NCBI GenBank assembly: GCA_029012425.1
Contig: JAQXMB010000042.1
Location: 26,908-90,907, forward strand
Source of the DNA: a bacterium
GTDB lineage: Bacteria > Bacillota > Clostridia > Lachnospirales > Lachnospiraceae
DNA length: 64,000 nucleotides
Reading direction: 5' to 3'
The position numbers and the translations under genes are program-made. Under the pieces are notes generated by a model. It did no database searches and was not told where the DNA came from. It worked only from the letters and a program-made list of their open reading frames with translations. Below are positions 5,449 to 61,313 of the stretch, piece after piece. How positions within the stretch are numbered: the stretch's first letter is position 1; every line of letters begins with the position of its first letter.

Positions 5449-5478
5449 TTCTTATTCTCCTTTTTTGTATCGTTTGCT

Positions 5479-5587
5479 TTCAGTTACGGTTGGCGGTCAT
5501 GACTGTCTATTGCATTTCCCTTTCAATTACGATTGGCGGTCATGACTGTCTATTATATTTCCCTTTCAATTACGATTGGCGGTCATG
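5479..5587. repeat. 43-bp tandem direct repeat, about 2.5 units (TTTCAATTACGATTGGCGGTCATGACTGTCTATTATATTTCCC)
   Basis: GGCGGTCATG recurs at 5495, 5538 and 5581, an exact 43-bp period. The third unit runs into composite repeat copy A. Confidence 0.9.
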
Positions 5588-6081
5588 CATACACATATAG
5601 CACAGGCACGCTCTCGCTACTTGTCGCTGGCAGTGGTACATAAGTGTCCAAAATACGGACACAAAGTACCAGCCGCTCCAAAGTACCTGTTTCCTATATG
5701 TGTATCGCATTCCCTATCCACGCTACGAAAAGCTTAACAAAATATACGCTAAGCGCTGCCATGAAGGTTCCTGCCGATGCCACTGTTTATGCTGTCGGCA
5801 AGGTTCATGACAGTTCCCGTCAGCTGCGACTTTTGGCTGGCGTAGTGCGAGCGAATCGTAAGTGTTCCGCCTATCATAACTGAAAGCCGAAGACTATGTG
5901 TTCGAAGGACACATCGAGTCGAGGCTGAAGGAACAGCGAGACACCGTCAGGCAATCGGAGCAGTCTGACGGCGACACTGTCATGTCCGAAGCCGGCTCGG
6001 TTACCGACAGTTCCCATCAGCTGCGACTTTTGGCTGGCGCAGTGCGAGCGAATCGTAAGTGTTTCGCCTATCATAGCTGAA
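5581..6081. repeat. Composite structured intergenic repeat, copy A
   Basis: Shares long near-identical stretches with 25845-26283 (same strand) and 59715-59927 (opposite strand). Contains large inverted repeats and no plausible gene. Confidence 0.9.
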
Positions 6082-6132
6082 GAGACCGCGAGACACCGTC
6101 AGGCAATCGCAATAACCTGACGATGACACTGC

Positions 6133-6230
6133 CGCAGAGACGAGATGCGCCCTGCGAATCTCGCTCTGATTAGCGGTCGTCAAATCTCCGCTTGCACAAG
6201 TGCAGCGTCCATTTTCCTCGTCGCCATAAC
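6133..6230. repeat. Second structured repeat module, copy 1 (GAGACGAGATGCG...CTCGTCGCCATAAC)
   Basis: Nearly identical to 44679-44777. Confidence 0.88.
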
Positions 6231-6465
6231 ACAAAAAGAGACCTATGGATTGCGCATTCGCCATCCACAAGTCTCATCGTTTCATGCAATACCAGATGCT
6301 CATCACATCATTCTGTTGATACCGCCACACGCCTCGCGTGCCGACTACTCCCTCGTAAACTTTGCTAAGTATATCACAGCGCCTATAGCATGACAAGAGC
6401 ATTTTGCAAGATTGCGGTAGTTTTTTTCATATGCTATACTTAGCATGCAAAAAGGAGGATCTATC

Positions 6466-22368: not shown

Positions 22369-22568
22369 TTGATAGATCCTCCTTATTATATGTATATATT
22401 TTAGTTTTGTAAGAATCCACGGATTGCATTATGCTTCGCATTTCCGCAATCCTATGGACACTCGTAATCCGCCTTATCAGGCTACTTACTCGTGTCCATG
22501 AATGTTTCTAATGTTCAGATAACAACGCGAATAAATTCTCGTGTTATCTGCTCATTGAAACCGGATTC

Positions 22569-23762
22569 TTACTGCTCATACTTCTCAACGATTGTAGAGC
22601 ATCCCATTCCACCACCGATACACAGTGTAGCAAGACCCTTCTTAGCCTCAGGTCTCTTCTGCATCTCGTGTAACAATGTAACAAGGATACGACAACCGGA
22701 TGCACCAACCGGATGTCCGAGTGCGATAGCACCACCGTTAACATTTACCTTGCTCATATCGAAGTTCAGATCTCTTGCAACTGCGATAGACTGTGCAGCG
22801 AATGCCTCGTTTGCCTCAACAAGGTCCATATCCTCAATGGTAAGACCGGTCTTAGCAAATACCTTTCTGGTAGATGCAACAGGACCAACACCCATAATCT
22901 CGGGCTCAACTCCGCCAAGAGCTCCGCCTACCCATGTAGCCATAGGAGTGATTCCCAATTCTTTTGCCTTCTCTTCGCTCATAACAACAACTGCTGCAGC
23001 ACCGTCGTTGATTCCTGAAGCGTTACCAGCGGTAACAAGTCCACCCTGCTTTCCTGAGCAGCACTTCAAGTTGCCAAGGCTCTCAGCGGTTGTTCCGGGA
23101 CGAGGTCCCTCATCCTTAACAAAGTCAACGATTTCTTTCTTAACCTTAACAGGTACGGGAACGATCTCATCATCAAACTTGCCGGCTGCGATAGCTGCTT
23201 CGCACTTCTGCTGGCTGTTTGCAGAGAACTCATCTAACTCCTCACGGGTAATGCCATATTTATCACAAACATTCTCAGCAGTAATCATCATGTGATACTG
23301 GTTAAAGGCGTCTGTCAATGCATCGTTAACCATTGTATCAATGATTGTAGCATTGTTCATACGATATCCAAAACGAGCCTTTGTCATAGCGTAAGGAGCC
23401 ATTGACATATTCTCCATACCACCTGCTACAACGATATCAGACTGGCCTGCAAGAATCTGAGCAGCTGCCTCATTTACACACTTCAGACCAGAGCCGCATA
23501 CAACATTCAAGGTAACTGCGGGAACCTCAATCGGTAAACCGGCCTTGATAGAAGCCTGACGAGCTACATTCTGTCCCTGAGCTGCCTGAATTACACATCC
23601 CATTAATACTTCGTCAACCTGCTCAGGCTTAACACCTGCTCTCTTGATTGCCTCTTTGATTACGATTGCACCTAACTCTGCTGCAGGGGTGTTGCTTAAT
23701 GCACCACCCATTTTGCCGATTGCAGTACGGCAAGCTGATGCGATTACTACTTTGTTTGCCAT
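22569..23762 (-). CDS. thlA: Acetyl-CoA C-acetyltransferase (thiolase)
   Basis: [18 protein letters not shown]...[16 protein letters not shown]...[25 protein letters not shown]...CIGGGMG. Confidence 0.97.
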
Positions 23763-25788: not shown

Positions 25789-25844
25789 TTCTATATTATT
25801 ATTCTCCTTCTTTCCTATCGTACCCCATCAACTTACTTTTTGGG

Positions 25845-26284
25845 GTCATGCGTACACATATAGCGCAGGCACGCTCGCGCTACTTGTCGCTGGCAGTGGT
25901 ACATAAGCGCCCAAAATACGGACGCAAAGTACCAGCCGCTCCAAAGTACCTGCTGGATATATGTGTATCGCATTCCCTGTCCACGCTACGAAAAGCTTGA
26001 CAAGGTCAGTGCCCGCGCTTCCATGAAGATTACTGCCAATGCCATTATTTACGCTGCCGGCAAGGTTTATGGCAGTTCCCATCAGCAGCGACATTTGTCT
26101 GGCGCAGCGCGAGCGTATCGTAAATGTTCCGCCTGGCATATCTGAAAGCCGAAGACTATTTGTGCGTAGGACAAATCGAGTCGAGGCTGAAGGAACAGTG
26201 AGACACCGACAGGCAACCGGAGCAGGTGATGGGATGCTGCCATGATATTGCCGGCAAGGTTTGTGGCAGTTCCCATCAGGTACT
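25845..26284. repeat. Composite structured intergenic repeat, copy B
   Basis: Collinear with copy A (5581 onward): GGTCATGCGTACACATATAGCGCAGGCACGCTCGCGCTACTTGTCGCTGGCAGTGGTACATAAG... Confidence 0.9.
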
Positions 26285-44678: not shown

Positions 44679-44777
44679 GCACAGAGACGAGATACGCACT
44701 GCGAATCTCGCTCTGATTTGCGCTCGTTAAACATCCGCTTGCACAAGTGCAGCGTCCATGTTCCTCGTCGCCATAAC
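44679..44777. repeat. Second structured repeat module, copy 2
   Basis: Nearly identical to 6133-6230; lies between scfA and scfB. Confidence 0.88.
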
Positions 44778-44847
44778 AAATGACCGCTTGCAATGCAAAC
44801 GGTCGTCTGTACTTATTGTACTCATTCATTTCTATGCAAAATAATTA

Positions 44848-59008: not shown

Positions 59009-59632
59009 TTATTCGTCAATCTTCATCTCGCCTGCATTCTCAATTTTGTCGTAAATCAGTGAATCCATAAGTGCCCAGATTTCTTCTCGTCCCTGCTTGG
59101 TCTGTGCGGAAAAAGGAATTACAATATCCTCTTTTTTCAGCCCCAGACCTTCTCTGACCTGTTTGACTGCCTTCGCCACCTGAGAGCGTTTCAGCTTATC
59201 CAGCTTGGTCGCAATAATGACCGGCTGATAGCCCTGATACACAATCCAATCATACATCTGTTTATCATTGGCACCGGGGGTATGTCGAATATCTATCAGA
59301 AGAAAAACGGCACGAAGCTGTTTACTTTTGTGCAGATAGTTTTCAATCATCTTTCCCCAGCGCGCACGCTCTGCCTCCGAGACTTTCGCATATCCGTATC
59401 CCGGCAGATCAACCAGATACATCTCCTTATTGATGTTGTAAAAATTGATGGTCTGCGTCTTACCCGGCGATGATGATGTCCGGGCAAGTGCCTTTCGATT
59501 CATCAACGCATTGATGAGCGATGACTTTCCAACATTCGATTTTCCGGCAAATGCAAGTTCCGGAAGTGTGTTGTCCGGTATTTTGCTTGTCACGCCGCAG
59601 ACTGTCTCAAGACTTACTTCTTTAATTACCAT
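59009..59632 (-). CDS. engB: Ribosome biogenesis GTP-binding protein YihA/YsxC/EngB
   Basis: LPELAFAGKSNVGKSSLINALMNRKALARTSSSPGKTQTINFYNI...DLPGYGYAKVSE. Confidence 0.96.
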   Translation of the reverse strand: MVIKEVSLETVCGVTSKIPDNTLPELAFAGKSNVGKSSLINALMNRKALARTSSSPGKTQTINFYNINKEMYLVDLPGYGYAKVSEAERARWGKMIENYLHKSKQLRAVFLLIDIRHTPGANDKQMYDWIVYQGYQPVIIATKLDKLKRSQVAKAVKQVREGLGLKKEDIVIPFSAQTKQGREEIWALMDSLIYDKIENAGEMKIDE

Positions 59633-59659
59633 ATTATTTCTCCTATATGATATGTGATT

Positions 59660-60025
59660 ACCAAACCGTTCTATTTATGCTGTCACAGTGGAAGCCGGCA
59701 GAGTCTGTGGCAGTTCGGTAGGTTCCTAATCGCACACATAGTCTTCGGCTTTCAGCTATGATAGGTGAAACACTTACACTTCGCTCGCACTGCGCCAGAC
59801 AAATGTCGCCGCTGACGGGAACTGCCACGAACCTTGCCGGCAGTGTAAATAGTGACACCGACAGTATCCCCTTTATGGCAGCTCGTAGCGTGGATAGGGA
59901 ATGCGATATATGTGTACGCATGACCGCGCCCAGTAGCCTGATGGGGCAGACACCGGCAGGCAACCGGAGCAGTCTGATGGTGACACTGCCACAGACGATG
60001 CCGGCAAGGTTACCGGCATTATTCC
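59660..60025. repeat. Composite structured intergenic repeat, copy C (rearranged; core on - strand, tail module on + strand)
   Basis: Reverse complement of 59715-59927 aligns to copies A/B but lacks the large internal hairpin; 59951-59995 (GACACCGGCAGGCAACCGGAGCAGTCTGATGGTGACACTG) aligns in the opposite orientation. Confidence 0.85.
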
Positions 60026-60032
60026 ATACGAT

Positions 60033-60064
60033 AAAAAGGAGCCCGTCAACAATCAACAGGCTCC
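60033..60064 (-). terminator. Terminator after clpX
   Basis: Minus strand GGGAGCCTGTTGATTGTTGACGGGCTCCTTTTT. Confidence 0.85.
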
Positions 60065-60070
60065 CAACTC

Positions 60071-61313
60071 TTACGCACCTTTGCGCTCAATCTCAGGCTC
60101 GTTCGTTCCCTCAACCGCACCCTTAGTGATCGTACAAGCTACGATGGATTCATCCGAAGGAATCTCAAACATCAGATCCTCAAGTGTGTGCTCCATGATT
60201 GCACGAAGACCTCTTGCGCCGGTTTTTCGCTCCAATGATTTATCCGCAATTGCCTCCACAGCATCATCATTGAAATAAAGCTCAACACCATCTAACTCAA
60301 ACAGTTTTTTATACTGCTTGATTAGCGAATTCTTCGGCTCTTTTAAGATGCGTACCAACGCATCCTTGTCTAACGAATCCAGCGATACAGTTACCGGCAC
60401 ACGGCCGACAAACTCGGGAATCAGTCCAAACTTCACAAAATCCTGCGGCAATACCTGACGGAACAGTGCTCCGGTATTCTTCTCATTCTTCTCACGGATT
60501 TGTGCATTAAATCCGATTGATTTTGCATCCATACGGGTCTCGATAATCTTTTCCAAACCATCAAAAGCGCCGCCACAGATGAAAAGAATATTCGTCGTAT
60601 CAATCTGAATCAACTCCTGCTGAGGATGCTTTCTGCCTCCCTGCGGGGGAACGCTTGCCTGCGTACCCTCGAGAATCTTCAGCAGTGCCTGCTGTACACC
60701 CTCACCGGATACATCGCGGGTGATTGATACATTTTCTGATTTTTTCGTAATTTTATCGATCTCATCGATATAAATAATTCCACACTGGGCACGCTCGATA
60801 TCATAATCAGCAGCCTGAATCAGTTTGAGAAGAATGTTCTCAACATCCTCTCCCACATATCCTGCCTCTGTCAAGGTGGTTGCATCTGCAATTGCAAACG
60901 GAACATTTAAGATACGCGCCAATGTCTGTGCCAGAAGCGTTTTTCCGGAACCGGTGGACCCAAGCATCAAAATGTTACTCTTCTGAAGCTCCACATCAAT
61001 CTCCTGCTCACAGGTTATCCGTTTGTAATGATTATATACCGCAACAGAGAGCACTTTTTTTGCCTCATCCTGTCCGATGACATATTCATCCAAAAATTCT
61101 TTTAGCTTTTTGGGTTTCTGAAGATTGATTTCAAACGCGGGCTTTACCTGCTCTTCATCCTCTTCAAATTCCTCCTCGATGATCTCACTGCAAATATCTA
61201 CACACTCATCGCAGATGTAGGCTCCACCGGGGCCTGCAATCAGCTTGCGCACCTGTTCCTGTGTCTTACCGCAGAAATTACAGCGAATTTTATCATTATT
61301 TTTGCCAGTCACT
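60071..61313 (-). CDS. clpX: ATP-dependent protease ATP-binding subunit ClpX
   Basis: (V)[40 protein letters not shown]...[47 protein letters not shown]; likely GTG start at 61313. Confidence 0.97.

What the first reader, a model, noticed from the sequence alone, without database searches (positions are those of the whole stretch)
5581..6081. Composite, gene-free structured repeat family in intergenic regions (copies at about 5.6, 25.9 and 59.8 kb)
Copies A (5581-6081), B (25845-26284) and C (59660-60025, mostly inverted) share long stretches such as GGTCATGC(A/G)TACACATATA, CGCATTCCCTxTCCACGCTACGA, CAGTTCCC(G/A)TCAGC and CTGAAAGCCGAAGACTAT(G/T)TGT. They sit between unrelated genes, encode no transposase and have no convincing ORF. 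Each is built from inverted-repeat modules in different combinations. This could be a MITE-like element, a structured RNA or a recombination substrate. I do not recognise it as a named family.
Basis: partly seen in the sequence, partly recalled or inferred. Interest (0 to 1): 0.85.

Follow-up and report, generated by a model that had tools for sequence, protein, structure and literature searches.

The report
Hairpin-tipped palindromic mobile repeats
The three look-alike gene-free stretches are worn, patchwork copies of a small hopping DNA hairpin found in dozens of copies in about 40% of sampled genera of the gut-bacterium family Lachnospiraceae; its tip is strictly conserved while its long arms change together on both sides, and no catalogue or paper I searched describes it.

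Summary
In detail: copies A, B and C are three of about 22 places in this genome (34 alignments). Each is built from two modules. M1 is a palindrome around a 98-nt hairpin core; M2 is genus-specific. A covariance model of the core matches 62 of 150 Lachnospiraceae genera, often in more than 20 copies, and no genome outside the family in a class-wide sample. Pairing is strongly conserved (93% of cells paired, 339 double changes against 95 in shuffles). No Rfam family matches.

In relatives the core sits at the tip of a roughly 200-bp near-perfect palindrome. Its 17-bp terminal repeats match those of an IS1182-like insertion sequence, and 10-13 bp target duplications flank it. One orthologous locus shows filled, empty and footprint-like states. 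So it is a MITE-like, non-autonomous element.

Two features are unusual: the core outlives changes of ends and arms, and arms change on both sides together without strand-specific wobble pairs, pointing to DNA-level maintenance. Orientation to genes is not consistent, so a general RNA role is not supported, though M2 and the 3'-UTR bias in Coprococcus catus keep it open. Copies A-C lack intact ends and no matching transposase was found in the genus: probably relics.

The parts
5477..5605 (+). Three 43-nt direct repeats (CTTTCAGTTACGGTTGGCGGTCATG...); the third runs into the left arm of M1
   Evidence: family D7
5581..5729 (+). Copy A, module M1: palindrome GGTCATGCATACACATATAG...CTATATGTGTATCGCATTCCC around the conserved core
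   Evidence: 86-88% identical to M1 in the closest genus members
5595..5692 (-). Conserved hairpin core of M1 in copy A (model R1)
   Evidence: 112.7 bits, E 3.2e-29 (window sequence is in the training set)
5790..6005 (+). Copy A, module M2 (extended hairpin, genus-specific); model R2 at 5817-5971
   Evidence: 183 bits (training member)
5985..6131 (+). Second, internally deleted M2 unit in copy A (R2 at 6014-6123)
   Evidence: 84.4 bits
25844..25992 (+). Copy B, module M1
   Evidence: 89% to copy A
25858..25955 (-). Conserved hairpin core of M1 in copy B (model R1)
   Evidence: 109.2 bits
26050..26279 (+). Copy B, module M2 (R2 at 26079-26232) plus a repeated 31-nt stretch at 26249-26279
   Evidence: 166.8 bits
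59658..59869 (-). Copy C, M2 in inverted orientation with a replaced tip and 3' half (R2 at 59658-59818)
   Evidence: 34.6 bits
59883..59932 (-). Copy C, M1 remnant without core: GGTCATGCGTACACATATA|TCGCATTCCCTATCCACGCTACGA
   Evidence: (I6, I7)
59948..60018 (+). Copy C, 3' part of an M2 unit (AGACACCGGCAGGCAACCGGAGCAG...)
   Evidence: (D9): 82% to copy A

Best explanation
The repeats are members of a Lachnospiraceae-wide superfamily of non-autonomous, palindromic, MITE-like elements. An intact unit is about 200-310 bp: a 17-bp terminal inverted repeat, long complementary arms, and a 98-nt apical core that folds into a branched hairpin with a small GNRA-like side hairpin. Shown in relatives: the ends equal those of an IS1182-like insertion sequence, 10-13 bp target duplications flank intact copies, and one locus has filled, empty and footprint-like states among congeners. 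Inferred: an IS1182-type transposase moves the unit in trans by cut-and-paste. Inferred: the arms stay complementary because replication across the palindrome switches template and copies one arm from the other, which fits the equal numbers of G-U and A-C mismatches and the turnover of both arms together. Inferred: the core is kept because the hairpin form of the DNA is needed, for example for recognition by a transposase or host factor, or to make a long palindrome tolerable. In this genome the family has gained a second hairpin module (M2), and units have been chained, truncated and had tips swapped at short matching sequences, giving the composites A, B and C. These lack intact ends and no such transposase was found in the genus, so they are probably immobile relics.
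For: Terminal repeat TAGGYNNTTGCGAAACT with 11-13 bp target duplications: L067 TTAAATATCGA, L050 CAATTATGATAA, L045 GTTCTCATTCTA, L046 12 of 12. L504, L498 and L502 carry core, ends and perfect 10-bp duplications in two further genera. IS of 1745 bp with a 505-aa frame, the same ends and duplication AATTCTATATTG (L129), and L137 with ATAGATTTATT. Filled and empty orthologous site with doubled target in L293. Core covariation: 93.1% paired, covariation score 0.597 against 0.207 shuffled, sliding destroys it. Arms: G-U 91 against A-C 85. Orthologous copies in two species: core 86-99% identical while both arms are 38-63% identical, with pairing high within species and near zero between species (L426/L439, L434/L443). 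Tip swaps and chained units in own copies. No related transposase in 10 genus genomes.
Against: Copies A-C have no recognisable terminal repeats or target duplications; in this genome end-like sequences appear only at three other copies. Families in other genera (C. catus, G070, G139 and others) have different ends and no detectable target duplications, so IS1182-type mobilisation is shown only for part of the superfamily. No movement was observed directly. The transposase is below NCBIfam's IS1182 cut-off (75.7 against 270 bits). What the core does is not shown.
Confidence: 0.68

Rival explanations
1. The core (and M2) is a structured RNA element, for example a 3'-UTR stabiliser, terminator or processing site, that has been spread by insertion and is kept for its RNA function.
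For: Strong covariation. In G034 (C. catus), G070 and some others the element sits 45-110 nt after a stop codon with the same strand as sense: 29 copies against 2 mirrored in my count over. G034 arms often carry a T-run after the hairpin (13 of 26). M2 shows G-U 60 against A-C 18.
Against: In 63 copies from many genera orientation is not consistent (stop near the 3' side 22, near the 5' side 12, starts 19 and 15). Core and arm mismatches are strand-symmetric. T-runs are not significantly enriched overall (19 against 16 of 72). Wobble intermediates are rare at covarying pairs.
Confidence: 0.2
2. The palindromes are REP/BIME-like elements moved as single-stranded hairpins by a Y1 (RAYT or IS200/IS605) transposase, with the core as the recognised hairpin.
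For: Conserved asymmetric hairpin tip, intergenic location, high copy number, inverted pairs and composites.
Against: Target duplications and terminal inverted repeats shared with a DDE-type IS are not expected from Y1 transposition. No link to a Y1 transposase was tested.
Confidence: 0.05
3. Elements spread by inverted-repeat-replacing transposition, as described for IS1272: palindromes replace other palindromes, so arms are inherited from the target or donor and modules nest.
For: IS1272 of the IS1182 family replaces inverted repeats (PMC5678879). Both arms swapped at the same locus between species. No target duplications in several families. Nested tips in own copies.
Against: The IS found here and many elements make 10-13 bp duplications, which the IR-replacing model does not predict. 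The core stays while the arms change, whereas whole-element replacement would also exchange the core for another copy's.
Confidence: 0.07

Closest known systems
MITEs of prokaryotes (e.g. QMITE2 of Coxiella burnetii, reviewed in PMC10969869)
   Same: Short, non-coding, terminal inverted repeats, target duplications, transcript or DNA able to form a stable hairpin, parent IS
   Different: Here an internal hairpin core is conserved with covariation across many genera and several kinds of ends, while the arms turn over
IS1182 family (IS1272)
   Same: Parent IS has a DUF772 transposase most similar to IS1182 models; the family has a known link with palindromic targets (PMC5678879)
   Different: Transposase scores far below the IS1182 cut-off; makes 11-12 bp target duplications, unlike the newly inserted IS1272 copies
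MRSC-65-2 motif (mobile/repeat sequence candidate, PMC11109978)
   Same: Single long covarying stem, dozens of copies per genome, likely mobile, may act as DNA
   Different: MRSC-65-2 is described as occurring in diverse phyla with a UYCCGG repeat; this one was found only in one family and its consensus does not contain that repeat
BOX elements of Streptococcus pneumoniae (from my own knowledge)
   Same: Modular, intergenic, palindromic, composite units
   Different: Different sequence and host family; no homology tested or expected

Membership tests
MITE | Short, no coding capacity | tested here: met
   Elements of 62-386 bp; no convincing ORF in A-C
MITE | Terminal inverted repeats | tested here: met
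   Met in relatives; not recognisable in window copies A-C
MITE | Target-site duplication | tested here: met
   10-13 bp in intact relatives; not found in other-end families
MITE | Parent IS with the same ends | tested here: met
   L129, L137, L132 in other genera; none in own genus
MITE | Mobility (presence/absence at orthologous sites) | tested here: met
   L290 filled, L294 empty, L293 footprint-like
IS1182 family (parent IS) | Transposase above NCBIfam NF033551 cut-off | tested here: not met
   75.7 bits against 270; DUF772 above the Pfam cut-off
IS1182 family (parent IS) | Insertion into palindromic targets | not tested
   Only one empty site was examined and it was not assessed for palindromes
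Any Rfam family | Covariance model match | tested here: not met
   None at gathering score for the repeats; only weak unrelated hits at E up to 5
MRSC-65-2 | UYCCGG repeat in a long stem | tested here: not met
   Not in the core consensus of alignment A1, by inspection; the published model itself was not run
REP/BIME with RAYT | GTAG/CGTC foot and associated Y1 transposase | not tested
   No search for Y1 transposases was made

The most novel reading that the evidence does not exclude
The core is a transferable hairpin tip that persists as an entity of its own: it passes between unrelated palindromes while both arms are rebuilt around it, so the unit of inheritance is the tip and not the transposon ends. 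This would be a mobile-element life style not described before.
Probability: 0.2. Interest if true: 0.8.

Novelty: new variant of a known kind. Interest (0 to 1): 0.6.

Why it matters
A high-copy, structured palindromic element in about 40% of sampled Lachnospiraceae genera would be one of the commonest mobile repeats of a dominant gut family, yet it is absent from Rfam and from the papers searched. It helps explain why such genomes break into contigs at intergenic repeats. It also offers a natural experiment on how long palindromes stay perfect: the arms evolve in concert with few wobble intermediates, so covariation here need not mean RNA function, a caution for RNA discovery pipelines.

Tried and rejected
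Rfam at gathering and permissive thresholds: nothing relevant. Terminator reading: T-runs not enriched on one strand overall, weak in C. catus. Universal 3'-UTR sense orientation: strong in some genomes but not in a broad sample. Choosing the RNA strand by G-U against A-C: symmetric in arms and core, so my first preference for the GNRA strand was dropped. Target duplications at palindrome ends of families with other ends: not found apart from two doubtful cases. Congeners of C. catus for empty sites: none held. An apparent gain in G208 against G361 (L449/L448) was not a clean insertion. Hairpin pair with about 1 kb between (L437) as a possible larger transposon: the interval holds an ordinary host gene. 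M2 as a family-wide motif: only the own genus.

Full report
What was checked. In the own genome (a fragmented assembly, 172 contigs) the 551-nt query gives 34 alignments in about 22 places. Printing all own copies shows two modules. M1 (window 5581-5729, 25844-25992) is a palindrome, GGTCATGCRTACACATATAG ... CTATATGTGTATCGCATTCCC. M2 (for example 5790-6005) begins with TGCCGGCAAGGTT...GGCAGTTCCC and contains CTGAAAGCCGAAGACTATGTGT. Copy C has M2 and the outer M1 arms but no M1 core.

The core. M1 aligned across the genus, and its core across other genera. In complete relatives M1 lies at the tip of a 201-208 nt near-perfect hairpin. A model of 98 positions built from 24 sequences has 15 of 24 pairs with compensatory double changes. 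On 65 distinct sequences found with that model, 93.1% of cells pair, 21 of 24 pairs have a change on both sides, and the covariation score is 0.597 against 0.207 in shuffles and at most 0.11 when slid. That alignment was fitted to the structure, so the counts lean towards it; the independent MAFFT alignment A1 shows the same pattern. Rfam has no counterpart.

Distribution. With one genome per genus, 62 of 150 Lachnospiraceae genera match at E up to 0.001. In a class-wide sample only 5 of 196 genomes match, all in the same family. A pattern scan of named genomes lists Coprococcus catus, Roseburia porci, Ruminococcus turbiniformis and Anaerocolumna sp. MB42-C2 among cultured hosts.

Ends and parent. 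The genus elements end in TAGGYNNTTGCGAAACT / AGTTTCGCAANNRCCTA and are flanked by 11-13 bp duplications. Searching these ends across the family led to insertion sequences with the same ends and duplications: L129, 1745 bp, AATTCTATATTG on both sides, and L137, ATAGATTTATT. Their transposase has a DUF772 domain and is nearest to IS1182 models but far below that model's cut-off. It is not found in any of the ten genus genomes. Elements with core, ends and perfect 10-bp duplications occur in two further genera (L504; L498 and L502). One locus is filled in G006, with orthologous sequence in G001 and G009 also spanning the element. It lacks the element in the other genus members with a match on both sides; the alignment shows this for G003, G002, G008 and G000. 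G008 has a doubled target, TTTAAATATC-CTTAAATATC, which looks like an excision footprint.

How the arms behave. In 87 copies the arms beyond the core average 32 aligned pairs, 87% Watson-Crick, with 91 G-U and 85 A-C mismatches. The core is similarly balanced once the fixed G-U closing pair and one unpaired-like column are left out, about 44 against 35. Selection on one RNA strand should favour G-U. Covarying pairs show few wobble intermediates, for example U-A 33, C-G 29, U-G 1. In two congeneric species with ten orthologous copies, the core is 70-100% identical. At two loci both arms have become unrelated (54/63% and 44/38%) yet pair well within each species and not between species. Template switching across inverted repeats is a known way to make and keep perfect stems (PMC8794818). 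Replacement of palindromes by IS1272-type transposition is an alternative (PMC5678879).

Genes around the elements. In C. catus, G070 and some others most copies follow a stop codon closely in one orientation (29 against 2 by my count over; G034 alone about 15 against 0). This does not hold in a broad sample of 63 copies, and T-runs do not mark one strand overall (for C. catus). Open reading frames, not trained gene calls, were used, so distances are approximate. In G070 two hairpins with a spacer of about 195 nt form one repeated composite unit, so composites are not unique to the window's genome.

Module M2. Its model finds 20 copies in the own genome and none in 149 other genera; single copies were seen in G001 and G008. 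M2 has more G-U than A-C pairs (60 against 18), so an RNA role for M2 is less excluded than for the core. M2 also occurs next to end-like sequences (L022, L016, L023).

The window copies. A, B and C have no intact ends. Copy C lies between engB and clpX; most genus members have about 2.4-3 kb there, consistent with a lon gene that I did not verify, and G002 has 65 bp with a terminator-like hairpin. The composites are best read as decayed and recombined units.

Prior reports. Searches of the paper library by topic and by core sequence found no description. Supplementary files and ISfinder could not be consulted, so an earlier unnamed listing, for example among the 250 mobile/repeat candidates counted in PMC11109978, cannot be excluded.

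Noticed in passing
window 22412-22569 (-): Clostridiales-1 RNA (RF01699), 101 bits, full length
   Followed up: no
window 6135-6231 and 44682-44778: A different 97-nt hairpin-rich repeat, 92% identical between the two places; 6135-6231 directly abuts copy A
   Followed up: partly
window 59632-60071: engB and clpX are close together here and in G002, while most genus members have 2.4-3 kb between them, consistent with a lon gene missing in these two
   Followed up: partly
L183, L261, L263 (G070): Two different hairpins with a spacer of about 195 nt are repeated as one composite unit
   Followed up: partly
L020-L024 regions and own contigs C90, C86 (L003, L022): M2 tips replaced by a further hairpin (GGAACCTACCGAACTGCCACTGGCAGTTCGCCACGGATGCATGGCAACA), also seen in M1 left arms of C44, C146 and C2
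   Followed up: partly
L309, L351, L354, L355, L363, L379: Core-bearing contigs labelled Muribaculum, Gastranaerophilales or Bacteroidales from one NALB_ series of metagenome bins; labels probably wrong or bins mixed
   Followed up: no
L117/L512 (G099): 509-nt element with exact IS1182-like ends, content not examined
   Followed up: no
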